DNA from: Strigamia acuminata
Taxonomy: Eukaryota > Arthropoda > Chilopoda > Geophilomorpha > Linotaeniidae
NCBI GenBank assembly: GCA_949358305.1
Contig: OX442314.1
Location: 48,678,581 to 48,742,580, forward strand
Direction: 5' to 3'
DNA length: 64,000 nucleotides
Under the pieces are notes generated by a model, which was given only the letters and a program-made list of their open reading frames with translations, did not search any database and was not told where the DNA came from. Below are positions 1,345-42,390 of the stretch, piece after piece; position 1 is the first letter of the stretch, and the number at the start of each line of letters is the position of its first letter. A program made the translations under genes and the position numbers.

Positions 1345-1780
1345 TGTCACGGGCAGGTTACCCACCCTTCTTTTTTATTCATTTCTAACTTAGACCAACC
1401 CAATCTTAAGTTTCCTTATTTTTTCCCTAATCTCACTTTTCATCTAACATCGATGAATCATCTCTAAATATATGCGCAGCTTCATTGCGCGCATCTTATT
1501 ATTTCCAACAATTAACCTTATTTTATACCTTTCACCCCCTCACCCAATTCAATCGACCTGGTCACATGACTCATGTTTACCTGGTCACTGTTTTCATCTA
1601 TAATCTACACTTCTCATATTTCTCTCAACGAGTTAACACCTCTTAGATTGAATTGAGTTTGTCAACCTTTAATTTGCGCTTTAATGCGCGCACCTCTTAA
1701 TTTAACACTTAATAGCGCCTCTTTTTGCCCACCTTTTATCCCTTCGCATGCCTGTGACATCCTACGCCCACCCACATATG

Positions 1781-2264
1781 TGTTGGGTCAAAGCAGTTTT
1801 TCATTTCACGTATTAACGGCGCACTTTTTCCGGTTAAGTGCGTTAAAGGCAAAATTCGTGTCGCATTGTTTAATGTCCCGAAATCGAGAGCCAACTGCTT
1901 TAGATTGTTTCAATACATGCTTAGCACTTCAGTTGGCTCATGTTTTGCAGTGGATTTCGAATTGTCGTCTGCTATGATTTAGTTTATCTATTATTTCCCC
2001 CAGTGCATTATCCAGTGTTAATGCTGGTTTTGAGTTATCTTTACTTTGGTTATGTAAAGAACAAATCAACCTTTCCATCAGGATGATTTGTTCTACTTTT
2101 AGATCGAGGGCAAATAGCCTCGACACCTGTACATATTCACTTGCTCACCTGTTCTTGCCTGAATAAAGATGGCCGACGCGTTTAGTGCGGTTTCAGGCAC
2201 AAAATGACTTTTGTTTCGTCTCAAGTTCCTTTCCCGGCGTTGACAACTTCACTTATCATCGTCA
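1781..2264 (+). repeat. 5' LTR of the Copia element
   Basis: Begins TG and ends CA, 484 bp, near-identical to 16181-16664; I see single-base differences near 1825, 1851 and 2157. A polyadenylation-type AATAAA lies at 2162-2167. Confidence 0.95.
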
Positions 2265-2265
2265 G

Positions 2266-2276
2266 TGGTAGCAGAG
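2266..2276 (+). promoter_or_regulatory. Primer-binding site, initiator tRNA-Met
   Basis: TGGTAGCAGAG starts 2 bp after the 5' LTR. It is complementary to the CTCTGCTACCA 3' end of eukaryotic initiator tRNA-Met, the usual minus-strand primer for LTR elements. Confidence 0.85.
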
Positions 2277-3358
2277 GATGGTTGATGGCCGAATCGTGAA
2301 GTTTTCCAGCGGATTTCATAACGAAATCGACGCCGGACACGTCAATTTGGGCGGAACCGTATCCGCGCTTTGACGCGACGAGCGAACGTCGTGTTTACGT
2401 TCACATCGCCGATTCTGTGTTCCAACGGTCGTTTAGACGTTGGAAAGGACAATTAGAAACTGTAAGCAATTTAATTTCGCATATTAACTGTATTTTTGGC
2501 TCATTTCAAGGCGAAAATGGCCACCCGACGAGCTTCACTGCCGACCTTTTCCAAGATGGCGGCCCCCAGTGCGAGGCGAGTGTAAGCCGTGTTTTGGGCT
2601 GTTTCTTCACGTCGTGGGAGTTTCCAGGACAGGAAAACGCAGCGTGGCGACTAGTAACCGTCGTGGGAAACGTTTGGAGCGTCGGGAAATTTATTTCGAG
2701 GCGGAATTTTGCGAGACGGACATTTTTCGAGCGAGTTACGTGTGCGCTGCATCGTACGAGACGAGCACGCGCAAACGACGTTTACTGTCGGGATCAAGAG
2801 CCACTATTCGCACGTACGAGTGCAATAGTGAAGACCAGGAAGTTGGTGGAACCAGAATACACGCTGAATTCGTATTCTGGGCGGGTTAGTGCATACGCGC
2901 ACGCCCGTTTGCTACGTTGGAGCACCGTACGTCGTCGGTGGATCGCCGTTGGAATTTTGGCGACGAATTTGTCCCGCCAACAACGGAAAACAACGTGCCA
3001 CCTTCACAACGTATTATTTATTGCATTTTCGGGGTCGGAATTACTTTGTATAAATTTAAGTTTTTGCTTTTGGGACCTTTTGTATATTCGGCACCCTTTA
3101 GGCATTCGCCTAGTGTCGTCTCATTCTTGGCCAGGCTTGCTCGAAGCAAGGGGGCGATCCCGCGACCCCAGGTGTGTCGGACGGAAGCCCTTGTAGCGAC
3201 TGGTCAAGTTAGTTGTGCTCACTTATTGAGCTGCACCCCGGGAAGAATTGCATATTATTCGCCTTCATTTTGGTGGGAAAGTGTTATTTGTTTGTGTGCA
3301 AAGTGCTACGAATTAGTGAATTTTGTGTTTTGTGCTACATTTTCTCCAAAAATCCGAA
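2277..3358 (+). other. Long Copia leader between primer site and gag
   Basis: About 1.1 kb, GC-richer than the surroundings. Overlapping frames are open here (259 codons from 2417, 106 from 2569, 164 from 2917), but none shows a recognisable domain and they overlap each other. I treat it as untranslated leader, possibly with packaging signals. A coding role cannot be excluded. Confidence 0.5.
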
Positions 3359-6172
3359 ATGGCAGACGATTCGGATGGCGACGTGTACAAATCGTTTGGA
3401 CAATCGATTAAGAAACTGAATGGATTGAATTATGAAACGTGGAGTGTTCAAATTGCCCTAATTCTAAAGCAGCAAGGAGTTTGGGCCCACGTGATGGGCA
3501 CTGAGCCGTGCCTGTCTTCAAGCGCAACGGCGCGTGAAAAACGTGAATACGAGACGAGAGAGGCAAAAGCACACTCTACGCTTTGCCTGAGCTGCAATGA
3601 AGCCCAGCAGTCAGTCGCTGTCGCTAAAGACACCGCGAGCGAGGTGTGGGAAGCGCTAAAAGAGGCTTACCGACCCACGACCCGGGCTAGGAAAGCCAGA
3701 CTGCGTCGGGAGTTTCTGCAGTTGAAACTGAATGCTAACGAAGAGATGGTCGTATTCACATCTCGCGTCGATCGAAAGGCGCTCGAGTTGAAAGAAGTGC
3801 AGATTACACTCACTGATGAGGAGATAGCATTTCAATATCTCGATTTTTTGGATCCCCAATATGAGAACTTAAAACAAAGACTGTATCATTGGGATGATAC
3901 GGATTTCACCGTGGTCAAAGTGCTTGAACGTTTACTCGCGGAGTACAACCGCATGCACGCGTATGATTCAACGTTTGGGGCCAGCGGACAACAGGATACC
4001 AGTGCTTTCACGGCAAAACAACCCTGGAAATTTAACAAACCGGGTTCTACGACAGCACAACAAGGTGTATGTTATAATTGCGGAGGATTGGGTCACTTCT
4101 CGAGAGAATGCCCCTCGCAAAAGAAAATTGGACAGAATCCTCAGTCGTCCAACGCTGGACCAACATCTCAATTTAGAGGACAGCCACGTGGGAAAAATCG
4201 TGGAAAAGGAGGACGTGGTGGGCGCAAAGCCAATTTAGTCGACAATTGGATTGACGACCCGGACTCTCTCTACATGGAAGTGGAGGAACCACCGCCTCCT
4301 GTATCGTCATTTTTGTCAAATGGACCAGTAGACACCGCTTGGTACGTCGATACCGGTGCTACTGACCATTTTGCCTTTTGCAAAGAGTGGTTTGCAAATT
4401 TCAAGCCTCTCAATTACACAGTGCAGTTAGGGGAAGGGACCTCTAAAATAGAAGGGATTGGATCTGTGGAGTTAATTTCCACATATGGCAACAGGAGTAG
4501 AGTTGTTACTTTGAACAACGTCTATTATGCTCCGAATTTTCGAAAAAATCTTATCTCTCTCGGGCGCACTGATGAGGCTGGCTTACGCACTTACGTTGCA
4601 GACGGCAAAATGACTTTATTTCGGAAAAAGATTGAAGACCCATCGTTAACAGCTGTTCGACTCAGCAATCGCTTATATAAAGTTAACGGACATGTGTCTG
4701 TCACCTCTGTAAATGCAACTGCCATCCCTGCGCAGAAGGAGGCAGTTGGCATAACTAATTGTGTAAAACAAACTGTATTAACCATGCCTAGAGTTAAGTG
4801 TGAACTAACCACTTCTAATATGCAGTCGAATGGGAAAACGATTGTTGCAACAAATGGTGCAGTGAATAATGCGAGCAATGCGAACAATGCGCGCATGTTT
4901 AGTAATGTGGTACAGGGGGTTAATCAGATTGGAGTGAAACAGACTAAACCTACAGTAGGGGGACCAATTAAGACAGCTTTAACGGCAAATAATGAAGACA
5001 ATGGGAAGAAATTAGACAACGAAAAAGCGATACCGATGGATTTTTGGCACGGCAGAATGGGACACCTGAACGCAAAGGGAATTGTTCAAATGCAAAAATC
5101 CACAGAAATTTTTGGCGTTAAATTGAGCAATGAATTGGCTTCTCCTTGTGACGCGTGTAATAGGGCCAAGCGGGTTAGAGCAACCTTTTCTCCAATAGCT
5201 GAGATCAAGTGCAAGGGAATTTTAGATTTAATTCATATGGATCTTTGGGGGGCCGCATCATGCAAATCCTTAGGGGGGGCTGAGTATTATCTCATTATTG
5301 TGGACGACCACTCCAGATATATGTGGATCAGTTTTCTAAAGCATAAAAGTGAAGCTTTTGCCCATTTTAAAGTATGGCAAGCAGAAGTCGAGCGTGCGAC
5401 TTCTAGAAAAGTTAAAACGATCCGCACAGATAGGGGGGGTGAGTTTGTGTCCAAAGAATGGGATAATTATACTAAATCTTGCGGAATCAAGTGTGAACGG
5501 ACCAACGCCTACAGCCCCGAGATGAATTCGGTCGCGGAGCGATCGAATCGCACCATCGTAGAGGGGGTGCGAGCTATGGAATTGGAAAATGGGTTACCAC
5601 ACTTTTTATGGGCTGAGTTGGCAAATACCATTGTGTATTTGAAAAATAGATACCCTCACTCGAGTTTACAGGGACGGACTCCCTATAATGTATTTTTCGG
5701 ACGTCGTATGTCAGTGCGACATTTGCGCTGTATTGGGTCGAAAGTGTATGTGCACATCCCAGCGCAAACTCGGAAAAGCAAACTAGACAGCAGAGCTTGG
5801 TCGGGGGCCCTAATTGGTTATGCAATAACCACAGCTGGATACAGAATTTGGGACCCACACAAGAACAAAGTCTTTGCATCGAAACATGTAAAAATTGATG
5901 AGAATCAATATTGGTACGAGGGAACACAAACAGTTTCAAAAGGATTGGGAGGTGTTAAGGCTAAGAGGGGGTTTGGATCTGATGAGTACATTCATCTAAT
6001 TAGCGAGTCCGAAGCAGAAGAGGAGGAAATTCCTCAAAGTCCCCCTGTGTCGACAACACAACAAACTGTTAAACCTCCCACGCAGCAGATTATTCCTGCA
6101 GCCACGGTGGAGCCAGTGGATGAGGCCTCTACGTCTCAACCTGCTCCATATGACGGTTTACAATGGCTATAA
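3359..6172 (+). CDS. Copia Gag-protease-integrase polyprotein, interrupted at 6148 by a nested LTR element
   Basis: The start is ATG 3359 (MADDSDGD); a frame-open ATG lies 12 codons upstream. Domains by residue: Gag of the copia/UBN2 type (about 10-200), CCHC zinc knuckle starting at Cys238 (CYNCGGLGHFSREC), aspartic protease DTGATDHF (about 331), the HHCC pre-integrase zinc region (HGRMGHLN), and a retroviral-type integrase core with Asp628, Asp691 and Glu727 (D-35-E spacing). The integrase C-terminal region and an acidic, proline-rich linker follow. There are no stops or frameshifts over 930 codons. The last eight codons and the stop (6149-6172) belong to the inserted LTR. The native frame resumes at 15578. 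Expected role: capsid formation, polyprotein cleavage and cDNA integration. RT and RNase H, which normally follow integrase in Copia, are absent. Confidence 0.93.
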   Translation: MADDSDGDVYKSFGQSIKKLNGLNYETWSVQIALILKQQGVWAHVMGTEPCLSSSATAREKREYETREAKAHSTLCLSCNEAQQSVAVAKDTASEVWEALKEAYRPTTRARKARLRREFLQLKLNANEEMVVFTSRVDRKALELKEVQITLTDEEIAFQYLDFLDPQYENLKQRLYHWDDTDFTVVKVLERLLAEYNRMHAYDSTFGASGQQDTSAFTAKQPWKFNKPGSTTAQQGVCYNCGGLGHFSRECPSQKKIGQNPQSSNAGPTSQFRGQPRGKNRGKGGRGGRKANLVDNWIDDPDSLYMEVEEPPPPVSSFLSNGPVDTAWYVDTGATDHFAFCKEWFANFKPLNYTVQLGEGTSKIEGIGSVELISTYGNRSRVVTLNNVYYAPNFRKNLISLGRTDEAGLRTYVADGKMTLFRKKIEDPSLTAVRLSNRLYKVNGHVSVTSVNATAIPAQKEAVGITNCVKQTVLTMPRVKCELTTSNMQSNGKTIVATNGAVNNASNANNARMFSNVVQGVNQIGVKQTKPTVGGPIKTALTANNEDNGKKLDNEKAIPMDFWHGRMGHLNAKGIVQMQKSTEIFGVKLSNELASPCDACNRAKRVRATFSPIAEIKCKGILDLIHMDLWGAASCKSLGGAEYYLIIVDDHSRYMWISFLKHKSEAFAHFKVWQAEVERATSRKVKTIRTDRGGEFVSKEWDNYTKSCGIKCERTNAYSPEMNSVAERSNRTIVEGVRAMELENGLPHFLWAELANTIVYLKNRYPHSSLQGRTPYNVFFGRRMSVRHLRCIGSKVYVHIPAQTRKSKLDSRAWSGALIGYAITTAGYRIWDPHKNKVFASKHVKIDENQYWYEGTQTVSKGLGGVKAKRGFGSDEYIHLISESEAEEEEIPQSPPVSTTQQTVKPPTQQIIPAATVEPVDEASTSQPAPYDGLQWL

Positions 6173-8060
6173 ATGCCTATTTTCTATCAAGAAAGCGCTG
6201 TTGCGCCAATATGATGGTATTTTTACAATATTCTGTGTAAAACTGATAAATGTCTAGAATAAAGTCATTTATGATGTTTCAAATACAAAGATGTTCGTTT
6301 ATTAAGAATAAACACTAATTTCCACATGATACTAAAGTATCACGGCATAATTACGAAGATTCGTCTGCTAAAACCCGCATTTGTCAATGCTCCATATTGC
6401 CACTAGATGGCGCGATCGCAATTAGCGATAAATTCGAATACGAACTTGAAAACCTCATGATTAAATATAAACGTATATTTAATCAAGTGAATAAATTGTG
6501 TTAAATATTAATATAAATATATATTAAGTATCTGACATTGTTAAATACAATGTAACTTCCATTTCTGCGGGACAGAATGTTTAGCGATCAATCGGTCAAC
6601 CGATCAATCTGATTGGTGGAACCCATTTCCGGTCCTGGGTATCCAGTTCCGGTTGTAACAAGGATTAGCATAATTTGCATAAATGCTCCTCCGTATCCAC
6701 TTCCGGTGATACGGGATTGGAGGGATTCGTGGAACCCATGTTCCAATTGGATGACTGGATTAATCCTTAAATCCAGTCAGGTTATATAAACCCAAACAAT
6801 CGGCCATTCCGCAGCTCTGTTTGATTATTTCTGTTTGGTATTGTTACTTAAGAAGTATGATTCGTTGTTCACGTAAAAAACCTTTTGGTTCTTTGTTGAT
6901 TTATTCGCAAAGAACCGTTGCATGATTCTACAGAATCATGCCACCGCCGGCAATTGAAGTCGAAGTGCTGGGATTATTATGTTGCATAAATGTTACAGTC
7001 TACGGTTGCGACGCCGAAGGAGAACCCGCCGTTGTGCAATTCAGTATCCTCCGGACAGGACCAAGTTGTCTTTTTCGGTATGAACGTATTCCGTTACCAC
7101 GAGTAGCATCGGTATTGTTGAGAATCGGTTCCTTCACCTGATGGTGCCAAAGCAGTCTGTTTTACAGTAACCACGAGTAGCACCAAGTGTTTGGCAAGCT
7201 GATTCTCATGGTATTCGATGCCAAAGCAGTCGGTCTATTATTAGTACCGCGAGAGATAAAACTGCTGTGCGGAGCCGCGAGCTATCGACCCCTGTGTACG
7301 TGGTACCGTCAACCACTCGATGGACGACCGTGCTGCGACGCCGGGGACGCTTGATACCGTTCTGCATGGCAAGGCGTATATTCTAATCGATGGCAATTGT
7401 GTGTTGCGACGGGAAGCTTAATCTTCATTTTATTTATAACAGCAAAACTTAAACTCGACAACCAGTTGGACCAAAATCAAGTCAGAAGACTTAATCTCAT
7501 ATTGAACTCAATATAACCGATAAGTTGACGACAACTTATTCCCGAAATATCTAAATAAGAATTCACAACGATATGAATTAAATATAATTCATAAGTGGAA
7601 TATTGATAAGTAAATGAATACATTTACTTACACCAATATCCTCCCAAAGTTGTGGCGGTGCAGACAAAGTCAACCGCAATGCTCAGATCATTCGATTTAT
7701 CGACGTGCGATAGTTTACACAGCGAACCAAGGAAACCAGCGAAGCCGTATCGGACTCCAGGACACAGCCATCCGGCTTAAGATGACATCTATAATCAGGT
7801 CGAGCGATGGGGAAACCGCTCCCATATTCCAGACCCGTAGTGATATTATTCTAGGGCCAGTTGGCCAATTCTTTGTATAGTTTAATAGCTGATTTAACTT
7901 GCCAAATGTCGGCATTAGTCCTATGTATAATTTAGCTCATCCATATTGTTTGCCAACAATAAACTGTCTTGTATTTATCTCGTATTGTATTCACTGTTTA
8001 TTTATTGCGATCTCTTCCCGGTACCATTGTTAAATGGGAGTTGTGGTCGTCACCGTCACA
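6149..8060 (+). repeat. 5' LTR of the nested element
   Basis: 1912 bp, matching 13662-15573. A TATA box TATATAAA lies at 6783-6790, with the presumed transcription start about 25-30 bp downstream. AATAAA is at 7958-7963, so R and U5 are long. Short frames inside (67 codons at 6938, 88 at 7614) have no known domain and are probably not genes. Confidence 0.93.
6783..6790 (+). promoter_or_regulatory. TATA box in the nested element's LTR
   Basis: TATATAAA sits about 630 bp into the LTR, at the expected U3/R boundary. It is repeated in the 3' LTR at 14296-14303. Confidence 0.6.
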
Positions 8061-8690
8061 CGTGGAGGTCCCACCGAGATTAGGTTGCAATTAAATTCGA
8101 TTGAATTGCAACAGTGAATATTGGAGATAAATATTTAACTAAAAGATTTAAGTTAAAAATAGACAGATTAAATTTTCAGTTTATATTTCCATGTGAAGAA
8201 GTTAAACTGATGAAATAGAAATACGTAGTAGATTTTCCTTCATTATTTTCGTTTGAAGATTTTAGGGATTTCAAAGACTACCACCTAATCTCACACGTGG
8301 AGGTTCCACCGAGATTAGGTTGCAATTAAATTCGATAGAATTGTAAAAGTGAATTTTGAGATAAATATTTAACTAAAAGATTTAGTTAAAAAACAGACAA
8401 GTTTCAAACCATGTTTATTTTCTTGAGAAACACCAAAACAGTCCTTTAACTAGGAATTTCGGAAGTTATAGACCTATCACACGATCACTGAAATAGGTTG
8501 CAAATTAATTCGATCGAATTGCAAAAGCGAATCTTGAATCCGATATTAACTAAAAAATTTTAGTTAAAACAGACAAATAGATTTTCAGTTTATATTTTCA
8601 TGTGAAAAGTTAAACTGACGAAATGGAAACGTTTAGTGAACTCTCTTTACTATTTTCGTTCGACAATTTAAGGAATACGAAGTATTTTAA
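8051..8690 (+). repeat. Three tandem leader repeats, the second with a second primer-binding site
   Basis: Units begin near 8051, 8287 and 8474. Each has 'taggttgcaa', then an AATTCGAT-AATTG palindromic patch, 'aactaaaa', and a 'cagacaa' segment; units 1 and 3 continue to a 'gttaaactga' block. Unit 2 keeps a full primer-site copy (about 8295-8313) with one base change (TGGAGGTTCCACC). In unit 3 that part has decayed. Confidence 0.75.
8063..8081 (+). promoter_or_regulatory. Primer-binding site, tRNA-Gln
   Basis: TGGAGGTCCCACCGAGATT, 2 bp after the LTR, is complementary to the 3' end of animal tRNA-Gln (AATCTCGGTGGGACCTCCA) over all 19 positions as I recall that tRNA. Confidence 0.82.
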
Positions 8691-11586
8691 ATAAGAAATC
8701 AAAAAAGTTTCGAGTGAAATAAGAATACAGATATTTTTTTTCGAAGTTTGTTTTATTTCGAAAAGCTAAAAACATACAAGTTTAGAAGGCGGACTTCTTA
8801 CGAATTTATCTTTCCACCTGAAAAGTTAAAACGAAGAAAACACCGCAACTATTTGGAAATATTTACAAGAAATTAAGTTTCTTGTAACTGTACGTCGACA
8901 CCGATAGCCAGCGACCACGCGCCATAGCAATACGCGTCGATCTCCGTATCAAACGCAGCAGGGAAGCTACTCAAACCTTCAACGCAAGGTGCGAACGAAT
9001 GCTTGGAAATTATGGCGGACAACAGATAAAAGACAGCGGAGAAATGTTACAGAAGGTTCGTAGAGATTTATTTAAGTGTCGCGAACTAATTTTTCCACTG
9101 CCATCGGTACCAAAGATAATTTAGTTGTTGGAGAAAAACAACACACTCCATTTCGCAGAAAAGATTTGCAAATCGAAATGAATATTACCTTTATTTGAAG
9201 GAATTAACTATTTTCACAAAAAGTACATTTTTTCCTTCGGGACAATGGAAATTAAGAAAATATAAAATGGCGGCGAATGAAGTTGCCGACCACGTAGAAT
9301 AGTATTTTTTACATTGAAAGTTACGAATCACGATAAACGCTTTCCCTCGGAAAAGTAAAAGGATTTCATTCAATCTTTCCTTTCGGAAATTTAACAGTGT
9401 TTTAAGTTTCCAACGATATTTGGGTCTCCCAAATTTTGAGAATTTCTAAATGAAATTTAGCTGTTTGAAAAACAACGAATATTTTTAGTAATCTAATCGG
9501 ACATTTTCCCACATGATTTCTTAAAACCGGAATAACAAATCCATTTGTGGCTATGAACTTTGCCACATGAAATATTTACGGAGCGAATATTTTTTGATTG
9601 GATTGAAGCTTTAAAATCAGATAGCTGATTTAAACGAAGAAAATAAGTTTCAAAGTAATTATTTTTCTTTCGGAAAAATCAAATAAATCACCGCTGATGA
9701 AAAGTTGTATTTTTCCATTCGAAAAAACTAAGAATTGCACAAGATTTATCTTCTATTTTGAACATAGATTTTATTCGGAAAAGGAAAGATTCTAGATACA
9801 TTATTTTTCTCTAAAAATTAAGAATTTAGTCAATTTTCCTAAAGGTTAATGGAATGTCATCATATATTTCGTTCGTAATTTACGTGTTAAAGTTTAATCA
9901 GAAAAACGATTGAATATGTTTTATTTGCGATAAGTAAAAGAAAGGTTCTTTAAAAATGGAATTTCGATGCAAATCCCACAGTAAAGGGAATGTTATGTGT
10001 GAGCAATTAACGAAAAGTTGGAATAACTTCATTTTATTTCATTCAAAAGTAGTTGTGAAAAATCAATTTCAAATATTTTTCAAAGAAAAATTATTTTTAT
10101 CGGAAAAAAGTAATTTACATGTCCTCGCGCGGACCGAGTAGTAAACTGCTTAATTGTGACATCGATACTGTTATTGTGTCACGTGTTATACGGAATTCCA
10201 AACCAGTGAATTACGAATTTTGGCGCGATAGGAATAGAAGTTTGACAGTGAAAGTTCTCCAGATTTGTCTTTTCATTTGAAAAGTTCAAATTGAGGAAAT
10301 GCTGCAGCAGATGAAGGTATTTACGACAATTGAGATTTAAATATTCTTTCATTCAAAAGATAAAAGATCTCTGCAAAAACATCTCGTTATTAGAGATAAG
10401 GGGGACGAAAATTATTAAAACGAATAATCAAAGACACGTCCTTCGTAAATATCGCAAAGGAATAACTAATTGTGAAAACAATTGTCCGCTCAGGAAAAGT
10501 GGAATTTAGCTAGATATTTTCTTTCGAAAAAATCAAAGCAATTGTCATCAAAAAAGAAAGATTTGATGAATAATTTTTACCCAAAAGTCTAAAGGATTGT
10601 CGAATAGTTTTCTCCCGAAAAACAAGTACACATTTGTACCAATAACTTTATCGTTTAAAGTAAAATTTCGAATATTTTCTTTTGGAAGATTAGAGAATTA
10701 GATAATTTTTCTCGCAAAACAAATTTAAAGAATTTTAACGAATTTTTATTTGTTAAAAAAAATTTGTTAAAAAAGGGGGAGATGGATGGTGAAAATTTAT
10801 TTTTTCACACTCGAAAAATGGAATTTAAACCCGAAAAAGTAAAGACTTGGTCAAATTATTCTTCCTATTGGAAATGAATACACAATGTTGGGAATCGAAA
10901 ATAGATTTCAATTACAAAGGAATGATTATTTGAACGATAATTGAATAAGAATAAGAAAAATTGAGAGTTTGAGAAAACTTTATTAAAGTTGTGGTTGTAA
11001 CGATATCACACACTAACGGAATAATTAAAAGAAAAATATTTTTTGAAGAAAAGTTATTTAATTATTTGGATTGGTAAAAATCCCAAAGTTCAAGAAGATT
11101 GAAGTAAGTTTATTTTATTTTCATTTGAAAAATACAATATTTTACGAATGTCTTCCCGAAGGAATTTTATTTTATCGGTAAAATTGAATCTCGAAGGGAA
11201 CGGACTTAGTAGAGAACTACTAAATAGATGTAACGTCCTTTATACCATTGGCCGACACTAACATCCGCCAATCAGAAGTTGGGAGATCTAGGGATCCCCA
11301 GCCCCCTGCTATTAAAGGAGGACCAGATCAGATACTGATCATTCGCATCCAGACCAGACCAGAAGACGTGTTCCAGAGTCATCTTGACCACGCCGTCCCG
11401 ATTTCAGTCACGATTCGAATTTTGTGTGCCGTGTAACCTGCAAAAGCTAACACGTGTCAAACAAACGCGAAGTTTAATTTTATTTTGTCAAAAGTAAAGT
11501 TTAGAAGTGTTTCTTGTTGAAAAGTGTATTATATTCGTCTTCTTTATAAATTAAAGAATTAAAATCGTCAGATTTTGAATTTTTTT
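8691..11586 (+). other. 2.9-kb AT-rich leader of the nested element with a degenerate short motif array
   Basis: No gene is seen. A degenerate motif close to TTTTCNTTYGAAAARTNAAR recurs twenty or more times. Examples are near 8751, 8810, 9225, 9350, 9375, 9650, 9710, 9770, 10270, 10345, 10525, 10600, 10670, 10800 and 11115. Many copies form short hairpins. Runs resembling a polypurine tract (aagggggac or aaggggga) also occur near 10398 and 10770. Confidence 0.6.
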
Positions 11587-13068
11587 ATGGCTCAAAAACC
11601 ATTGAATATGATCGATCCAAAAGGAAATAATAAGCAGACAAACTTAAATTTAAGTTCTATACCACTTGGCGATCAAACAGAAAAGATTCCCGATCATTTT
11701 ACTCTGTATTGTAATCGTCATGGACTGGATAAAACCAAGTTTAAAAATATAATCGAAGCTTCAGACTATGTAAAAGCTAGGAACTGGCGAGATCGTACCC
11801 AATCTCAATCTTCACATCAAGATCCAGTACGGAATCCACAAACATACAGCCGAAACTTAGTGAATCAAGATTCTCATACTATGTTTCAAACATCCAGTAG
11901 GGGATCTAAGTTAGAAAAGTTTAAACCACCTAATTCGGTAGATAAGGGGGAAGAGAATTATAAACCTAATAATTCTCGTCCAGAGAGTTCGTTAACTAAC
12001 CAGTCGGTTGTTCAGAACAAATTAAAACTCGTTTACAATCGAGATCAGCTAATTTCAGTTCGATATGCTAATCCAGCTGAAGCACAACAATATGTGGCTA
12101 GCCTTAATCTGTCGATTAACCTACCGCTATCAAAAGAATTGGGAACCGTAAACAAAAGTTTTGGGCCACCAATATCAACGCAAAGGAAAGATATTCGGAC
12201 TCCAAACAAACATTTACAGTCAAATAACGTACAACAACGTGCCCGATCGCCGATCACAAACTCATGTTTGCGGACGTATGATTTGTCTACCAAGAAGAGT
12301 CCCCAGCCAAGACAATTCTACCTAACGCCCATTTCAAATCGAAAAAAGGTCAAGCAAACTTTTCCCTTGAAAAAGTATTACCAACACGATAATGAGAATG
12401 ATTTTAAACCTAAAAAAGAAAGTTTTTTGACTAACCCACGGGAGATCCGGTATCAATTCGAACAGTATTGTAAACAATACCAGTTAAATTCAGCTGAATT
12501 TAAAAATATAAACGAAGCGCAACAATTCGTATTTCGAAATCAATACCGTAACCAACGACTAAAACCCGTCCCAGTCGTCAATCTGACGGAGATACAACAA
12601 TTTGCGTCTGGAAAGCAACCCTGCAATATCCAGAATAATTCATCTCAACGAGAGGAATTAAGAACTTCAAAAAAGCGTTTTCGGTCACCAAGTCCAGCTG
12701 GTGATGAAGAAACTTCAAGTACAAACCAACATGTTCAAAAACTGACTGAAAACCCAGGTTTCCAATCATCAGTTCCACGACTTAGAGTCAAATATAGATC
12801 CCCTCGTTTGTTGCGGGATTTCACAATTCCAAATATGGGTCCTTTCCACGTATGGTTTTCCAATGAGGGTCCCATTCATGTATGGTTTTCCAGAGATGAC
12901 CTAAAACAAAAAGTTGGGTCGTCACGGTCATTTACACTGCCAAGTGAGTACACTGTGTGTAACTGCCCAAAGAAAAAACGTCGAAAGAAATCAGTACAGC
13001 AGGCTGAGAGATCTCGGAAATTTGCAAATATGCGAGCTCAATATTTAGCAAAGAATCATGTTGATTAA
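11587..13068 (+). CDS. Unrecognised 493-residue basic protein of the nested LTR element
   Basis: The first ATG in the frame is 11587. I recognise no family. The protein is hydrophilic, rich in Asn, Gln, Ser, Lys and Arg, with no membrane segment. A motif of the form F-x2-YC-x(5)-L-x3-FKNI-EA-x2-(Y/F)V appears twice: FTLYCNRHGLDKTKFKNI near residue 40 and FEQYCKQYQLNSAEFKNI near residue 300. A weaker third version containing NPAEAQQYV lies near residue 160. A short tandem repeat (GPFHVWFS / GPIHVWFS) lies near residue 420. The C-terminus has CNCPKKKRRKK, a likely nuclear localisation signal. It is the only long ORF of the element, in the place of gag. It could be a diverged Gag-like nucleic-acid binder or a captured sequence. 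The frame is intact and codes through AT-rich DNA, which argues for function. Confidence 0.6.
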   Translation: MAQKPLNMIDPKGNNKQTNLNLSSIPLGDQTEKIPDHFTLYCNRHGLDKTKFKNIIEASDYVKARNWRDRTQSQSSHQDPVRNPQTYSRNLVNQDSHTMFQTSSRGSKLEKFKPPNSVDKGEENYKPNNSRPESSLTNQSVVQNKLKLVYNRDQLISVRYANPAEAQQYVASLNLSINLPLSKELGTVNKSFGPPISTQRKDIRTPNKHLQSNNVQQRARSPITNSCLRTYDLSTKKSPQPRQFYLTPISNRKKVKQTFPLKKYYQHDNENDFKPKKESFLTNPREIRYQFEQYCKQYQLNSAEFKNINEAQQFVFRNQYRNQRLKPVPVVNLTEIQQFASGKQPCNIQNNSSQREELRTSKKRFRSPSPAGDEETSSTNQHVQKLTENPGFQSSVPRLRVKYRSPRLLRDFTIPNMGPFHVWFSNEGPIHVWFSRDDLKQKVGSSRSFTLPSEYTVCNCPKKKRRKKSVQQAERSRKFANMRAQYLAKNHVD

Positions 13069-13661
13069 CATGATATGATACACAAAGATTCCCCGATTAT
13101 AGTGTAAACAGAAAATCCTCTTCTAAAAATCATGACCTCTCTTCTAAAGAAAAGGGGGACAAAATATAAAAGTTAGAATTAACAAAATTTTGAAAAGTAA
13201 TGCTACATTATTAAGACAACTAGTTTAATTAAATTAGTCAATTGTACAAAGAATACCAAGTGACTCCGGTCATGACAATTAAGGGGGACATTTTGATTCT
13301 TAAATTGTCAACTCTTATCATCTAAAAGCTATTTATTGTATATTTATAGCGATACATCTGACTAGGCATATGAAATAAATATTTTGTGATAACACAAATG
13401 ATGATTTTATGTATGACGAAAGTTTCTTCAAAAAGAAGACTTGGAAATAAATTCTGGACTTGAATTTAGGCTATTAGAAAAGATTATTTCGGCAGAAAAT
13501 CAGAACTTAGATAATTCAAGTTAGTTTATGTAAACTCAAATTCGAAATTGGAAGTCACGGTATCTCCAAGATACATCAAGTCCGAAAATAGCATTTATGC
13601 TAATTAGGAGAATAACGAAAACTCTATAAAATATTATATAGTTGTGTTATTAAGGGGGATG
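13069..13661 (+). other. 3' non-coding part of the nested element with polypurine tract
   Basis: No ORF. The tract ttaagggggatg (13650-13661) abuts the 3' LTR and is the likely plus-strand primer. Similar aagggggac tracts occur near 13154 and 13282. Confidence 0.65.
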
Positions 13662-15573
13662 TATGACGGTTTACAATGGCTATAAATGCCTATTTTCTAT
13701 CAAGAAAGCGCTGTTGCGCCAATATGATGGTATTTTTACAATATTCTGTGTAAAACTGATAAATGTCTAGAATAAAGTCATTTATGATGTTTCAAATACA
13801 AAGATGTTCGTTTATTAAGAATAAACACTAATTTCCACATGATACTAAAGTATCACGGCATAATTACGAAGATTCGTCTGCTAAAACCCGCATTTGTCAA
13901 TGCTCCATATTGCCACTAGATGGCGCGATCGCAATTAGCGATAAATTCGAATACGAACTTGAAAACCTCATGATTAAATATAAACGTATATTTAATCAAG
14001 TGAATAAATTGTGTTAAATATTAATATAAATATATATTAAGTATCTGACATTGTTAAATACAATGTAACTTCCATTTCTGCGGGACAGAATGTTTAGCGA
14101 TCAATCGGTCAACCGATCAATCTGATTGGTGGAACCCATTTCCGGTCCTGGGTATCCAGTTCCGGTTGTAACAAGGATTAGCATAATTTGCATAAATGCT
14201 CCTCCGTATCCACTTCCGGTGATACGGGATTGGAGGGATTCGTGGAACCCATGTTCCAATTGGATGACTGGATTAATCCTTAAATCCAGTCAGGTTATAT
14301 AAACCCAAACAATCGGCCATTCCGCAGCTCTGTTTGATTATTTCTGTTTGGTATTGTTACTTAAGAAGTATGATTCGTTGTTCACGTAAAAAACCTTTTG
14401 GTTCTTTGTTGATTTATTCGCAAAGAACCGTTGCATGATTCTACAGAATCATGCCACCGCCGGCAATTGAAGTCGAAGTGCTGGGATTATTATGTTGCAT
14501 AAATGTTACAGTCTACGGTTGCGACGCCGAAGGAGAACCCGCCGTTGTGCAATTCAGTATCCTCCGGACAGGACCAAGTTGTCTTTTTCGGTATGAACGT
14601 ATTCCGTTACCACGAGTAGCATCGGTATTGTTGAGAATCGGTTCCTTCACCTGATGGTGCCAAAGCAGTCTGTTTTACAGTAACCACGAGTAGCACCAAG
14701 TGTTTGGCAAGCTGATTCTCATGGTATTCGATGCCAAAGCAGTCGGTCTATTATTAGTACCGCGAGAGATAAAACTGCTGTGCGGAGCCGCGAGCTATCG
14801 ACCCCTGTGTACGTGGTACCGTCAACCACTCGATGGACGACCGTGCTGCGACGCCGGGGACGCTTGATACCGTTCTGCATGGCAAGGCGTATATTCTAAT
14901 CGATGGCAATTGTGTGTTGCGACGGGAAGCTTAATCTTCATTTTATTTATAACAGCAAAACTTAAACTCGACAACCAGTTGGACCAAAATCAAGTCAGAA
15001 GACTTAATCTCATATTGAACTCAATATAACCGATAAGTTGACGACAACTTATTCCCGAAATATCTAAATAAGAATTCACAACGATATGAATTAAATATAA
15101 TTCATAAGTGGAATATTGATAAGTAAATGAATACATTTACTTACACCAATATCCTCCCAAAGTTGTGGCGGTGCAGACAAAGTCAACCGCAATGCTCAGA
15201 TCATTCGATTTATCGACGTGCGATAGTTTACACAGCGAACCAAGGAAACCAGCGAAGCCGTATCGGACTCCAGGACACAGCCATCCGGCTTAAGATGACA
15301 TCTATAATCAGGTCGAGCGATGGGGAAACCGCTCCCATATTCCAGACCCGTAGTGATATTATTCTAGGGCCAGTTGGCCAATTCTTTGTATAGTTTAATA
15401 GCTGATTTAACTTGCCAAATGTCGGCATTAGTCCTATGTATAATTTAGCTCATCCATATTGTTTGCCAACAATAAACTGTCTTGTATTTATCTCGTATTG
15501 TATTCACTGTTTATTTATTGCGATCTCTTCCCGGTACCATTGTTAAATGGGAGTTGTGGTCGTCACCGTCACA
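13662..15573 (+). repeat. 3' LTR of the nested element
   Basis: 1912 bp, matching 6149-8060, followed by the TSD TCCA at 15574-15577. It contains the same TATA box and AATAAA. Confidence 0.93.
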
Positions 15574-15577
15574 TCCA

Positions 15578-16126
15578 TTACCCCAATTAGACCCTGAGTT
15601 ACCAGTGGATGTTGCTCACACTGCAGGAGATGCTACTCCAAGTGAAGGCAGTGACGATGATGCCAGATATGAAGAGGTAGTGGCACAGTCTCCTAATGTA
15701 AGGGGCAGGCATACTGGGGCGGTTGGGGGAGTTGAATTACAACAAATTGATATCACGAAATGGAAACGAGTAGAATATATTAGGAAATCCGGAGCACAAG
15801 CCGGACATGTTTTCATTCACTACATTGCACCGACGGGCACTCGATTTAGAAGTCGCATCGATGTAGTGAGGTGGTGTGAGGAAGAAGACTACGAATATGA
15901 TGCAGGGTTATTCGACTTTAAAGCGAAACCGCGGGCACAAGTTCCTCTACCATTCGCTAGTTTTTGTTACTTAAAACAAGGTACCTTAGGAGAAACCATG
16001 ACTGGTCTCAGCAATGAGGATTGGGGCAAGGAAATGGTTAAGGGGATTTACATCTTCGATCGGAATGAAGTCCGCGCTGAACATCGCAGACATTTTGACC
16101 AAGTGGGTTTCTCGCCCACGTCTTGA
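15578..16126 (+). CDS. C-terminal part of the Copia polyprotein with a methyl-CpG-binding (MBD) domain
   Basis: This is the continuation of the ORF at 3359. Without the nested element and one TCCA the frame is unbroken, adding 182 residues. After an acidic linker, an MBD-type domain spans about 15758-15919. Visible MBD hallmarks in order are KWKR, IRKSG, AQAG, YIAPTGTRFRS and a final FDF. In the MBD family this fold binds DNA, often methylated CpG, and recruits chromatin repressors. The 65 residues after it are unrecognised and end at TGA 16124-16126, shortly before the polypurine tract and 3' LTR. RT and RNase H would normally occupy this position. The link to methylated DNA is inferred from the family. 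Whether the methyl-contacting residues are kept needs a structural alignment. Confidence 0.85.
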   Translation, partial: LPQLDPELPVDVAHTAGDATPSEGSDDDARYEEVVAQSPNVRGRHTGAVGGVELQQIDITKWKRVEYIRKSGAQAGHVFIHYIAPTGTRFRSRIDVVRWCEEEDYEYDAGLFDFKAKPRAQVPLPFASFCYLKQGTLGETMTGLSNEDWGKEMVKGIYIFDRNEVRAEHRRHFDQVGFSPTS

Positions 16127-16164
16127 CGCATTATGCGATCATATATTTGATTGAAATGGATAAC

Positions 16165-16180
16165 TGTTTAGAGGGGGTTC
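16165..16180 (+). promoter_or_regulatory. Polypurine tract of the Copia element
   Basis: An AGAGGGGG run ends next to the TG of the 3' LTR, the usual site of plus-strand priming. Confidence 0.7.
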
Positions 16181-16664
16181 TGTTGGGTCAAAGCAGTTTT
16201 TCATTTCACGTATTAACGGCGCACCTTTTCCGGTTAAGTGCGTTAAAGGCGAAATTCGTGTCGCATTGTTTAATGTCCCGAAATCGAGAGCCAACTGCTT
16301 TAGATTGTTTCAATACATGCTTAGCACTTCAGTTGGCTCATGTTTTGCAGTGGATTTCGAATTGTCGTCTGCTATGATTTAGTTTATCTATTATTTCCCC
16401 CAGTGCATTATCCAGTGTTAATGCTGGTTTTGAGTTATCTTTACTTTGGTTATGTAAAGAACAAATCAACCTTTCCATCAGGATGATTTGTTCTACTTTT
16501 AGATCGAGGGCAAATAGCCTCGACACCTGTACATATTCACTTGCTCACCTGTTCTTACCTGAATAAAGATGGCCGACGCGTTTAGTGCGGTTTCAGGCAC
16601 AAAATGACTTTTGTTTCGTCTCAAGTTCCTTTCCCGGCGTTGACAACTTCACTTATCATCGTCA
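16181..16664 (+). repeat. 3' LTR of the Copia element
   Basis: 484 bp, begins TGTTGGGTC, ends CGTCA, and is followed by the TSD ATATG (16665-16669). Confidence 0.95.
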
Positions 16665-16669
16665 ATATG

Positions 16670-29883: not shown

Positions 29884-30879
29884 TGTGGTGACCCGACTGG
29901 GGTGGGGCACGAAGAGTTTCTCTCGTGGCCTACATACGGGTAAAGAAGGGGAGTCGCACGCGCGCCTCCCTTCCCTCAGAGCATTGACATCCAGTCAATG
30001 GACGGGCGTCTGCCCTGGGGGAGTGGGGGAGATTCGTCTTCTCCACTATTGGGTGGCTTTAGTCACCTGTCACCCCCCGCTTTGTGCAAAGGAATTCGCC
30101 TTGCACTGAGCGGGCAGAACCAACACAAAAATCAACCAAGATACACGTAAAAGCCAAACGTCCTAAAACGATCAAGCCTAAGTACAAAGACTTCAGGAGT
30201 GACCTAGGACAAGGGACTTTCAACGTGAGTACGATTGATTTGTGTTAACCTCCGCAGAGTAACCTGCGAAACAAGATTACCACACTATTTTAGCAAGCCA
30301 GCTAGAAATAGTAAACCTACTCCAATTTAGCGAGTTGTGCAGACAAACGGTCGCACAAGCCTAAATTGCAGTAACCACGACGAGCGTTCCCGCCGCTGTG
30401 TGTATCGCCGGGAACCACCAAGCGTCCGCCGCTGTGTGATCGCCGGACACCTACAAAAAACCCTAAACCTAGACAACAGACCAGAAGTAAGACCTTTCAG
30501 GCATTCACTCGCGCCCGACCAGCGTGAGCCCGAAGGACCGAACGAGAAACGTGAGACGAGGACGCCATTCATTGCCACGCCGGCCCAAGACGACACCACG
30601 TTGCCACGCGGACGCCATCTTGGATCCACAGCGACAAAGGACGACCTCGACCAGTTTCCCGCCAACTTCACACCCCTTTCCTTTTACCTTTTTATTCCCT
30701 TACATATTTTATTCCCTTTTAACTGTATATTCCCGTATAATAAATACATTTATTATATTTACCTTTTACATTGTCTTGCCGTGTTACATTATTTGGGTAA
30801 CCGCTTGAGTAAAGCGGTATTGCGAGATCAGAGAGTGACTCATACCACGTATCAGCGACAGACCGAGTTGAGCGCGACA
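29884..30879 (+). repeat. 5' LTR of the Gypsy element
   Basis: 996 bp, matching 42404-43399. It contains AATAAA near 30740 and candidate splice donors (AAC|GTGAGT near 30221; AGAA|GTAAGA near 30485). No clear TATA box was found. Confidence 0.95.
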
Positions 30880-30881
30880 CG

Positions 30882-30899
30882 TGGGGGCCTGTCCGGGAT
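30882..30899 (+). promoter_or_regulatory. Primer-binding site, tRNA-Pro-like
   Basis: TGGGGGCCTGTCCGGGAT starts 2 bp after the LTR. It differs at two positions from the usual tRNA-Pro primer site TGGGGGCTCGTCCGGGAT. Confidence 0.65.
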
Positions 30900-30947
30900 C
30901 GATTTAAACGACTCGAATAGAACTTGAGATCATTTTCATACCCAAAA

Positions 30948-33900
30948 ATGGCAGACAATATCCGAGTAACGGATTCCGACTCCGACGCGAACAAGAGAGC
31001 CGGCAGTCGTAAAGGCGCCGACTATCACTTGCGATCTGGAGGTCCCTTACCCAAAGCCTCAGCGCACGAAGCGAGGCAAAAACGGCGCAAGCCTAAACCC
31101 GATCGCAGAAGCGCATCAGAGGCATCGCACCCGTCTCGTTCCGAGACGAGGCAGCGATTGGACGAGACAGAGCGGGGTGAAGAGCAATCTCACTCCAAAC
31201 TGCCGCGTTCTAACCGTGACGGCGAGACGAGCGGAAACGAGGTTTTATCCCGTAACCCATCGCCTCGTCTAACGCACGACACCGAGGTGGGCAGTCCGAA
31301 AGCGGCGTCTCCGATACAAAAGACGGCCTCAAACACGACAGCTAATTCGGCACTAAACACGCCAATTACGCGAAGCCGCCCAGCTTCGGTCAGGTCCGAA
31401 GGACACAAGTCCAATGCGTCAAAAACTGAGCGTGTTCCGAGCCAGCCTTACAGCGTCTCGGCCACATTGGTTGACACGATGCAGTTGGCACAGGCAGAAG
31501 GTGTACGATACACTCTGCCAACGGGAAAAATAACTGTGTACGAAACATTACAAATCGTACGTGCAGCTTTAAGAGCGCACAGGTTATCCCCGGAAATCAC
31601 CGTTGTTGAAGGCGCATACGCTCAACAAATGGTAGACTCCGCTCAATTCGAAGCGGATGCCGAGAATGAGGCCCGACAAGCCATCCGCGAGAGAAAGCGG
31701 AAGCTGGCGGAAAGAGAAGCGCGAGCTCTCGAGTACGGCAAATCCCAGCGCGTTCCGACTACTCCAGAAGAAGTCGAAATAGTTGATCGAGCCTTACATG
31801 CACATCGTTATGCATTCCGTTCTCAACAAGAAGCTGAACAAGCTTTCATGACTAGGCTGCAACGAGACAAACCAAAATCCGTTCGCAAGCCAGAAGTTAG
31901 CTCGTCCGAATTGTCCGACGAGAGCGTAGAAGGCGACCCGAAGCGCACGCCGAAGGTCAGCCCCAAACCCGAGCGAAAAAAGGAAGTGCCAGTCACTCCA
32001 CGCAAACGGGAAGTCTCGACCGAACAACGCGTTCGACCTCGCATGATGGCGTTAGACGATAACACTAACAACGCTATCAACCGATTAATAAATGCGAACA
32101 ACGCGCGTCGTAACGAAGAACAGACTCACACGAGCCGACAACGCGACGACCCGCGGGGTAACGACTGGCAACAGCCGGTACCCATCCTCAAAGACGACGG
32201 ACCTTCGAGAAAACCTTCCGAAGACCGCACATCGTCACGAGAGGAACGTCAACGCGAAAGAGGACAGCAACAGTATCACTACGGAAACAGTGATTCGTCG
32301 TCGGATGAACTGGAGTCGAATGCACCCAGTCATCACGATTCGGAGAGAGGTTCCGGAGAAAGACGAAGGGAAAGAGAACGCGATGAACGCAGGGAAAGGG
32401 AACGTGACGACCGTCGTAGGGGCCGGAAAGAGTCAAACTCTTCACGGCGCAACCCGCCACGCCGCTCACCGTCTCCCGACCCCAGCTCCGACCCCTCGTC
32501 CAACGACGACAGACGAAATGATAAGTCAAGTAATCGCCGGAAGAGATCCAACTCTCCGCGCGATAGAGAGAAACGACGTCGATCGGAAAATAGCGACCAC
32601 CGACGGGAGGAGTTTCAGGACCTTCCCCGACAAAGCGCGTTTACCGATTCGACGGGTCGGCAGTATACGATGGGAGAGCTTGGGAGAGCCCTGCTTGGCT
32701 CGTTAAAAGCCGAAGGAATCGATCTGAGCAAACGAAATGATCGTAATCGTAACACTGGTGACCGCGTAAAGAAAAAATACGCTGTCTCCCGACGTGACAC
32801 CATGAGTGTTACCGGGAATATTAGGTGGCAATTTTATATTCAGAACCGTTTCGACGGGTCATGGAAAGCGGGAGATCGCTTCCTTGACGAAGTAATTCGG
32901 ATTAAGACTGCCACTAAAGCCACCGTAGGAGACATGCTCACCCACGGTATTGTCGAGCTAATGACAGGCTCGGCACGTGAGTGGTACCAAGGATTGAAAG
33001 GCGTCAATTGGGACGACTTTTTAATGAGATTCGACCTGCGCTACGGCGAGACACCCGAAGAGGTGAGCCGAAAGATGCGAGGTCTTCGCCAGATGCCTGG
33101 TGAAACCATAATGGATTACGACATTCGCGCCAGATTGTTGTTCGAAAAGGCCCCGATGGAATTTCATGCCACGGGATTCAACCTTTTCTTTCTCGGCGGT
33201 TTGTCGGAATACTCGCAACGGGTGCTACTTGAAGAAAGGGCACCGACAGGAGGCAGCTACGAAGAAATGAGCGCCTTCCTGTTCGAGAACACGATAGATA
33301 TCGAGAAGAGATATTATTCCGCTTTACCAGAAGCGGAGAAAGCAGCAACCGCTAAACGTCTCAAGTTGAGTGCGGAAAGATATGGGGCGACAGACAAAAT
33401 CATGCGCCCTACTGAATATCTTAGCGGTATAATGGAGCTGGCAGAAGCTAGCGTTGGTTTACAAATAAAAAATAAACTGACATCCACGCTGCCTTCCAAC
33501 CCATTGGCCGCCCCTAAAAAGGCACCGACAGCGTCAGCCATGCAAGCGACACTGGAGGAGGTCAAGGAGGGGGAGGAAGCCGAACAAAATGTCGGAAAAT
33601 CAGACGAAAAAGAAGAAAAAGACGATTATTCGACGGACGAAGAAATACGAAGCTATCGCGATACCTTATCAACGGGTTGCGATGAGGAAGGACCGCTAGT
33701 ACATCTCATCCATCGAGATAGAGCGGTAGAAGAATTTCGCGCCAGGTTAAAACCAAATGCCGGCCGAATTCCGAAGTATTTTCGAAAAAATTACACGCCA
33801 CCGTCGAAAGTAGACCCTGAAAAAAAGAAATCGATTGAAGCCCCAAGAGACAAATCAAATATTCGTTGTTTTAAGTGTAACCAACCGGGTCACTATTCCA

Positions 33901-34028: not shown

Positions 34029-34046
34029 CTTCTCGACCGTCTGCGC
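33983..34046 (+). promoter_or_regulatory. Programmed -1 ribosomal frameshift signal between gag and pol
   Basis: Two slippery heptamers A_AAA_AAC (33983-33989 and 33995-34001) are in the correct gag phase. Six bases after the second begins a 10-bp stem, GCGCAGGCGG (34008-34017) with CCGTCTGCGC (34037-34046), all paired with one G-U. The gag stop (34026-34028) lies in the loop. After a -1 slip the frame is open into pol with no stop. Confidence 0.85.
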
Positions 34047-34051
34047 CATTC

Positions 34052-38122: not shown

Positions 38123-38138
38123 AAAACGTTACGAGTCG

Positions 38139-42364: not shown

Positions 42365-42390
42365 TCGCTCCGAACACCGGCGGTCAGAGC

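What the first reader, a model, noticed from the sequence alone, without database searches (positions are those of the whole stretch)
3359..16126. Copia element with Gag, protease and integrase but an MBD domain in place of RT and RNase H
Seen: one frame of 930 codons ends with integrase, and it continues in phase at 15578 into an MBD-like domain (KWKR, RKSG, YIAPTGTRFRS, FDF), then a stop, polypurine tract and 3' LTR. The nested element left an exact 4-bp TSD and keeps phase, so RT was already missing when the Copia moved. Established: Copia order is Gag-PR-IN-RT-RH, and MBDs read methylated CpG. Inference: a parasitic Copia lineage that supplies its own capsid and integrase, borrows RT, and may target or silence methylated chromatin through the MBD. 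I know of no described element of this design.
Basis: partly seen in the sequence, partly recalled or inferred. Interest (0 to 1): 0.88.

Follow-up and report, generated by a model that had tools for sequence, protein, structure and literature searches.

The report
RT-less jumping element with methyl-DNA reader
This is a copy of a jumping element that lost its own copying enzyme but kept its coat, its insertion enzyme and a methyl-DNA-reading domain; elements carrying that domain are already known from arthropods, but here a copying-enzyme-free form has multiplied to about two dozen copies.

Summary
At 1776-16669 lies a Ty1/Copia element (484-bp LTRs 99.4% identical, 5-bp TSD). It encodes Gag-PR-IN and then an MBD (PF01429, 2.5e-10; AlphaFold pLDDT 88; 27 of 27 Foldseek matches at E <= 0.001 are MBDs), with no RT. 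A second LTR element (6149-15573) splits it.

The interpretation needs correcting. The MBD did not replace RT: in RT-bearing relatives of the same genome (5 of 5 frames scanned) it sits between integrase and RT. Relatives occur in public data, including the spider Araneus. Capture of an MBD by an arthropod retrotransposon family was published in 2019 (de Mendoza et al., Genome Res 29:1277; title seen only in reference lists).

What may be new is the RT-less subfamily. 22 of 32 loci found with a junction-spanning probe share one deletion joining the MBD region to the out-of-frame end of RNase H. Twelve of 20 close copies keep frames of at least 1060 aa; two of four delimited relatives have 100% identical LTRs. 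They are mosaics with RT-bearing-type relatives, suggesting co-packaging and borrowed RT. MBD-Copia flanks are CpG-dense and copies cluster near scaffold ends. Methylation-guided insertion is inference; this subfamily's MBD lost two of four recalled methyl-contact residues.

The parts
1776..1780 (.). 5' target-site duplication ATATG
1781..2264 (+). 5' LTR, 484 bp, TGTTGG...TCGTCA
2266..2281 (+). primer binding site TGGTAGCAGAGGATGG; complementary to the 3' end of an animal-type initiator tRNA-Met (tRNA identity recalled)
   Evidence: for the letters
3359..6148 (+). Gag-CCHC-protease-integrase-SH3 frame up to the nested insertion (Gag 3458-3958, CCHC 4067-4117, Pol_BBD 4340-4582, rve 5228-5518, SH3 5696-5914)
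6145..6148 (.). TSD TCCA of the nested element, left copy
6149..15573 (+). later nested LTR element (LTRs 6149-8060 and 13662-15573, 100% identical), not part of the Copia
15574..15577 (.). TSD TCCA of the nested element, right copy
15578..16126 (+). rest of the Copia frame: linker, MBD, out-of-frame tail, stop
15761..15931 (+). MBD (PF01429 match)
16076..16077 (.). deletion junction: RT and most of RNase H missing; seven relatives of the RT-bearing type match only from here on (within one base)
16077..16130 (+). end of RNase H; reads LNIADILTKWVSRPRLDA in another frame (motif recognised from memory), frame-shifted in the element's own frame
16170..16177 (+). polypurine tract AGAGGGGG
16181..16664 (+). 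3' LTR
16665..16669 (.). 3' target-site duplication ATATG

Best explanation
The window holds one copy, later broken by another LTR element, of a non-autonomous subfamily of MBD-carrying Copia elements. Its autonomous-type relatives encode Gag-PR-IN-MBD-RT (and RNase H, by motif). One ancestral deletion of about 1.4 kb removed RT and nearly all of RNase H. It fused the region just after the MBD, out of frame, to the last RNase H codons, leaving a Gag-PR-IN-MBD polyprotein. The RNA keeps LTRs, PBS and PPT and is reverse transcribed by RT from an RT-bearing relative packaged in the same particle; template switching there explains the mosaics. Integrase fused to the MBD would then insert the cDNA, with the MBD biasing insertion to, or retention in, CpG-dense chromatin. 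Shown: anatomy, shared deletion, young copies, mosaics, constraint, CpG-dense flanks and scaffold-end clustering. Inferred: RT in trans, co-packaging, and any targeting by the MBD.
For: Domain order IN-MBD-RT in 5 of 5 RT-bearing frames scanned (the MBD of two, L032 and L034, scores 20.6 and 20.1 bits, just under Pfam's cut-off of 21). 88 of the 150 scored MBD places (1362 candidates) lie in open frames of 1500 aa or more (my count). A junction-spanning probe gives 32 loci: 22 cross the junction, 7 start at it within one base, 3 are shorter. The junction region is shared by divergent copies L022 and L027. 12 of 20 close copies have stop-to-stop frames of 1060 aa or more. LTR pairs are 100, 100, 99.8 and 99.2% identical in the four delimited RT-less relatives, and 5-bp TSDs flank 5 of 5 delimited copies, the window included. 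Mosaics: RT-less L043 is 91-100% identical to L023/L024/L025 per 150-bp window up to mid-MBD, then 88-89%, 65% and about 50% to the junction; it is 94% identical to L036 after it. Junction-linked half of the MBD: dN/dS 0.14, 0.156, 0.083 and 0.103 against L019, L020, L018 and L002. CpG per 100 bp of flank: 5.4 (20 RT-less) and 7.1 (8 RT-bearing MBD) against 2.9 (20 non-MBD Copia) and 3.05 (20 control stretches). 110 of 138 MBD places but 50 of 147 other Copia places lie within 5 Mb of a scaffold end. Three host loci have both DNMT1-RFD and methylase matches.
Against: Trans-supply of RT is inferred from structure; no expression, particle or mobilisation data exist. Mosaicism could in part reflect gene conversion between genomic copies. 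CpG-rich flanks and end clustering could be selective retention or a compartment effect rather than targeting; MBD flanks are GC-rich overall (0.466 against 0.330 and 0.372). The window subfamily's MBD lacks the Asp and Tyr of the recalled methyl-contact set (FIHY instead of DVYY), so methyl selectivity may be reduced. Low dN/dS is not special to the RT-less branch: RT-bearing-type L021 gives 0.17, and constraint may be inherited through exchange with RT-bearing elements. The close RT-bearing copy L036 has a short Gag and L044 a frame that ends early, so an intact helper within this exact family was not shown; RT-bearing families of 1563-1637 aa exist. Window CpG o/e of 0.85-1.43 shows no broad CpG depletion, so heavy methylation of this compartment is not evident.
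Confidence: 0.8

Rival explanations
1. One reading: a Copia that swapped RT/RNase H for an MBD, a separate parasitic design.
For: The window copy has Gag-PR-IN-MBD and no RT, and 21 further loci cross the same junction.
Against: RT-bearing relatives carry the same MBD upstream of RT, and the tail after the junction is the end of RNase H, so this is a deletion and not a replacement.
Confidence: 0.03
2. A dead deletion relic amplified by duplication; the MBD and the open frames are incidental.
For: The window copy is broken; 8 of 20 close copies have frames under 1060 aa, and some copies lie close together on C13 and C6.
Against: 5-bp TSDs at 5 of 5 delimited copies, two LTR pairs at 100%, 12 of 20 frames open over at least 1060 aa, low dN/dS.
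Confidence: 0.08
3. The MBD does not steer integration; it acts elsewhere, for instance on silencing of the provirus or by binding the element's own DNA, and CpG-dense flanks only reflect where copies survive.
For: Flanks differ in GC as a whole, and MBD copies cluster regionally near scaffold ends; the window subfamily lost part of the methyl-contact set.
Against: In the frames scanned the MBD lies between the integrase SH3 domain and RT, the side of integrase where targeting modules sit in other LTR elements (recalled); both arginine fingers are kept in all 31 distinct core windows of this genome, though the public relative P0006 lacks the second (sequence).
Confidence: 0.35

Closest known systems
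MBD-carrying arthropod Copia family ('CopiaMBD', name recalled; de Mendoza, Pflueger and Lister 2019, Genome Res 29:1277-1286)
   Same: [quoted passage not shown] Recalled content: a Copia with a host-derived MBD, binding of methylated CpG, and biased insertion in a centipede and a spider. The public relatives here include a spider protein (P0005).
   Different: The window subfamily lacks RT and RNase H, and its MBD has lost two of the four recalled methyl-contact residues. I could not read the paper, so I cannot say whether it mentions RT-less forms.
Ty1/Copia LTR retrotransposons with the usual order Gag-PR-IN-RT-RH
   Same: LTRs, 5-bp TSD, PBS, PPT, Gag-PR-IN domains.
   Different: RT-RH deleted, MBD after integrase.
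Non-autonomous LTR elements that keep some genes (BARE-2, TR-GAG, LARD, TRIM; recalled)
   Same: Mobilised in trans while keeping LTR, PBS and PPT (recalled).
   Different: Keeps Gag, PR, IN and MBD and lacks only RT-RH; two Gag versions occur on one backbone. Literature searches on this class failed.
Chromodomain Ty3/Gypsy elements (chromoviruses)
   Same: [quoted passage not shown] its place by the integrase is recalled.
   Different: A different superfamily and a different reader domain.
Retrotransposons that captured DNMTs (PMC5890265)
   Same: Capture of DNA-methylation machinery by retrotransposons (passages).
   Different: Writers, not readers; in LINE and DIRS elements and, as cited by PMC6338049, Ty3/Gypsy. 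The paper says Copia elements of Symbiodinium lack any DNMT domain.

Membership tests
Ty1/Copia | Copia-type Gag (PF14223) with PR and IN upstream of RT | tested here: met
   for the window (Gag, PR, IN); for RT-bearing relatives
Ty1/Copia | 5-bp TSD, TG..CA LTRs, PBS and PPT | tested here: met
Ty1/Copia | RT (PF07727) and RNase H present | tested here: not met
   no RT match in the window copy; 21 further loci cross the same junction; RT present in relatives. It is a deletion derivative by descent, not a complete Copia
MBD-carrying Copia clade | MBD between IN and RT | tested here: inconclusive
   MBD follows IN as in the clade, but there is no RT to follow; descent shown by tree
MBD-carrying Copia clade | IN/RT phylogeny inside the MBD-bearing clade | tested here: met
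   28 rows, SH-aLRT 100, 24 with MBD; the RT-less rows rest on their IN part. P0004, P0010 and P0019 inside lack a clear MBD, P0008 is weak, and P0016 lies just outside without one. Root at midpoint only
MBD-carrying Copia clade | Methyl-CpG contact residues (two Arg, Asp, Tyr; roles recalled) | tested here: inconclusive
   both Arg kept in all 31 distinct core windows of this genome; Asp/Tyr kept in the distant families, lost in the window subfamily
MBD-carrying Copia clade | Binding to methylated CpG DNA | not testable with these tools
   needs protein
Non-autonomous LTR retrotransposon | Multi-copy, TSD-flanked, cis-signals kept, enzyme lacking | tested here: met
Non-autonomous LTR retrotransposon | Mobilised by an identified partner | tested here: inconclusive
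   mosaics with relatives of the RT-bearing type point to co-packaging; not shown directly

The most novel reading that the evidence does not exclude
A long-lived LTR-retrotransposon lineage that permanently gave up RT and RNase H yet keeps its own capsid and an integrase-MBD fusion under selection. It borrows only the polymerase, and its methyl-DNA reader steers its cDNA into CpG-dense chromosome-end regions.
Probability: 0.3. Interest if true: 0.62.

Novelty: new variant of a known kind. Interest (0 to 1): 0.45.

Why it matters
MBD-carrying Copia elements are a natural test of whether a transposon can use the host's DNA-methylation map. Here the MBD-bearing integrase exists in a form without RT, alongside RT-bearing relatives with much the same backbone and many Copia copies without a known MBD, all in one genome with DNMT1-type loci. 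That allows controlled comparison of insertion sites with and without the MBD, and of MBDs with full and eroded methyl contacts. It also suggests that an LTR lineage can persist and recombine after losing its defining enzyme.

Tried and rejected
Rejected: 'MBD replaced RT'; 'one-off recombination'; 'not a real MBD'.

Led nowhere: the linker-MBD region alone gave no homologues at E <= 0.001, whereas a longer region did. Single-sequence AlphaFold of the MBD was poor (pLDDT 60) and was not used; with 12 aligned relatives it reached 88. Literature searches for MBD with Copia or retroelements listed no direct paper; the 2019 paper surfaced through a reference list, and one search found papers that cite it. 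Papers seen only as passages: PMC6338049, PMC5890265, PMC11721087, PMC8616336, PMC9289625, PMC9246332, PMC8226279, PMC12344493, PMC11292947, PMC7343188; PMC3587641 was searched for five terms with no occurrence. The host species was not identified; an arthropod, perhaps an insect, is inference. Methylase loci were not read: an ADD_DNMT3 match on C10 has no methylase match beside it, so a DNMT3 gene is not shown, and the methylase match at C3:32.74 Mb contains seven stops.

Caveats on counts: one search left out L020 by a slip; one search includes it, and also repeats the test without four repeat-overlapping flanks. The 20 control positions were picked by hand at round coordinates, not drawn at random. 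Non-MBD Copia flanks and the 8 RT-bearing MBD flanks were taken at a fixed offset from a domain match, so some may contain element sequence. Only 4 non-MBD loci (one family) were checked for lack of an MBD; the other places are taken as non-MBD from their shorter frames. The tree used 45 of 120 listed public proteins. RT was confirmed by Pfam in five relatives, of the closest ones only in L036; L021, L023-L025 and L044 are called RT-bearing type because they lack the junction or share L036's sequence. RNase H was recognised by motif, not by Pfam. In one search, upstream comparisons of L017, L018, L019, L021 and L027 were spoiled by stops or lost frame and are not used; L018 and L019 are themselves decayed upstream. 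One search stopped on an error after four copies and one search did the rest.
Full report
What is in the window. A Ty1/Copia element runs from 1776 to 16669 including its target duplication ATATG. Its 484-bp LTRs (1781-2264, 16181-16664) are 99.38% identical. After the 5' LTR comes TGGTAGCAGAGGATGG, which I recognise from memory as complementary to an animal-type initiator tRNA-Met; before the 3' LTR comes AGAGGGGG. The frame at 3323-6172 carries Copia Gag, a zinc knuckle, Pol_BBD, the integrase core and the integrase SH3 domain. It is cut at 6149 by another LTR element (LTRs of 1912 bp, 100% identical; TSD TCCA). From 15578 the rest follows: a linker and an MBD (PF01429, E 2.5e-10, 40.3 bits against a cut-off of 21). 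PDB sequences closest to it are MBD1 and MBD2 (best 6.1e-7). AlphaFold with 12 public relatives gives pLDDT 88.4; 27 of 27 Foldseek matches at E <= 0.001 are MBDs, and the first 44 of the 50 listed rows are MBD or TAM domains.

The MBD is not a substitute for RT. The window lies in a 237.5-Mb assembly. A translated search with the MBD part scored 150 of 1362 candidate places, all 150 matching. Twenty are close (83-100%); the others are 38-77% identical apart from one fragment, and 88 of the 150 lie in open frames of 1500 aa or more (my count). Five such frames (L031, L033, L036, L032, L034) were scanned and read Gag-PR-IN-MBD-RT; in L032 and L034 the MBD scores 20.6 and 20.1 bits, just under the cut-off of 21. 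So the MBD sits between integrase and RT in RT-bearing members.

The lineage is wider than this genome. A homology search with residues 560-1620 of one RT-bearing protein found 722 proteins; of the 120 listed, 7 have a precomputed PF01429, one from the spider Araneus ventricosus. A profile built from the Copia MBDs hits 14 of 120 clearly and one (P0008) weakly. On an IN+RT tree with the linker-MBD columns removed, all MBD rows fall in one clade (28 rows, SH-aLRT 100, midpoint root) and a non-MBD Copia of the same genome falls outside. Against a perfectly clean picture: P0016, just outside that clade, and P0004, P0010 and P0019 inside it have no clear MBD, and P0008 only a weak trace; the last four form one branch, which suggests loss there.

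Prior work. [quoted passage not shown] The paper is not held. From memory, it describes MBD-carrying Copia in a centipede and a spider and proposes that the MBD guides integration.

The RT-less subfamily. A 196-bp probe across the end of the MBD frame found 32 loci. 22 cross position 16076/16077 (19 over the full probe, 3 partly, the most divergent 78% identical); 7 start there within one base, the pattern of RT-bearing relatives; 3 are shorter. After the junction the DNA reads LNIADILTKWVSRPRLDA in another frame, which I recognise as the end of Copia RNase H. One deletion of about 1.4 kb (estimated against L021 and L036) thus removed RT and most of RNase H and put the remainder out of frame. 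Divergent copies L022 (LTR 78%) and L027 share the junction region, so the lineage is not recent as a whole. Some copies are recent: LTR pairs are 100% in L041 and L043, 99.8% in L042, 99.2% in L039. TSDs of 5 bp flank these four and the window copy. Twelve of the 20 close copies have stop-to-stop frames of 1060-1198 aa.

Mosaics. RT-less L043 and L023, L024 and L025 are 91-100% identical per 150-bp window until mid-MBD, then 88-89%, 65% and about 50% up to the junction; L036 (the locus of L023) is 94% identical after it. The window LTR is closer to that of L035/L036 (97%) than to L043 (93%). Two Gag versions, long (window, L043, L040) and short (L041, L042, L039), occur on the same RT-less backbone; the short one is also on RT-bearing L036, the long one on L044, whose RT region was not scanned. 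Exchange between RT-less and RT-bearing elements is most simply explained by co-packaging and template switching, which is also how the RT-less RNA would be copied. This is inference.

Constraint. In the half of the MBD next to the deletion, dN/dS against L043 is 0.14 (L019), 0.156 (L020), 0.083 (L018) and 0.103 (L002), each with a significant excess of synonymous change. Against L022 and L027 synonymous sites are saturated, but the excess is stronger still. RT-bearing-type L021 gives 0.17 and L023 is saturated, so constraint is shared with the RT-bearing side. In the upstream IN/linker part L022 gives 0.105 over 392 codons, although exchange with RT-bearing copies could feed that.

Methyl contacts. 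In 31 distinct core windows from this genome both arginines that line up with the MBD1/MBD2 arginine fingers are kept; the public relative P0006 lacks the second. The Asp-Val-Tyr-Tyr stretch of MBD2 is kept in three distant copies (TDVYY, IDVYY), partly in the 1623-1637-aa families and a few others (DVVY, DVIY), and lost in the window subfamily (FIHY) and the 156x-159x families (YAHY). The roles of these residues are recalled. The window subfamily may therefore bind CpG DNA with less methyl selectivity.

Where the copies lie. 3' flanks of 20 RT-less copies have a median of 5.38 CpG per 100 bp, 8 RT-bearing MBD flanks 7.12, 20 non-MBD Copia flanks 2.90, 20 control stretches 3.05; RT-less against non-MBD p = 1.4e-5, and 2.5e-5 without four repeat-overlapping flanks. 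GC is also higher (0.466 against 0.330 and 0.372). Of MBD places on the large scaffolds 110 of 138 lie within 5 Mb of an end, of other Copia places 50 of 147, expected fraction 0.488. These fit targeting by the MBD but equally fit retention in a GC-rich compartment. The host has 11 DNA-methylase matches (11 of 11 scored); three loci also carry DNMT1-RFD. One ADD_DNMT3 match lies on C10 without a methylase match beside it. Methylation is possible but not shown. Window CpG o/e is 0.85-1.43, so there is no broad CpG depletion.

Verdict. The MBD replaced nothing, and MBD-Copia is a published kind. The RT-less, mosaic subfamily is the part I could not match to anything known, a new variant of a known kind.

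Noticed in passing
window 6149-15573: Young nested LTR element with 1912-bp LTRs 100% identical and TSD TCCA; its longest internal ORF (11575-13068, 497 aa) has no Pfam domain above cut-off.
   Followed up: partly
window 29884-43399: Gypsy-type LTR element with 996-bp LTRs 100% identical, open gag (1034 aa) and pol (1356 aa) frames, and a third frame of 1084 aa (39110-42364) with no Pfam match.
   Followed up: partly
window 47035-48678: P-element-type transposase frame (547 aa; PF21787, PF21788, PF12017) overlapping both copies of an exact 306-bp direct repeat (47221-47526, 48591-48896).
   Followed up: partly
L043 against L041, L042, L039, L036: Two alternative Gag N-terminal parts on otherwise near-identical backbones, one shorter by roughly 90 residues (716 against 447 bp).
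   Followed up: partly
window 60029-60454: Short tandem array with a period of about 20 bp.
   Followed up: no
window 56755-57615 (-) and 58763-59839 (-): C2H2 zinc-finger frame and BACK-domain frame, probably host genes or gene fragments.
   Followed up: partly
G000 C3:35.92 Mb, C1:11.84 Mb, C3:32.74 Mb: Three loci with DNMT1-RFD and methylase matches, suggesting several DNMT1-type genes or pseudogenes in the host.
   Followed up: partly
G000 C3:20309085-20309201: A short MBD match in a 110-aa frame, unlike the long Copia frames; possibly an exon of a host MBD gene.
   Followed up: no
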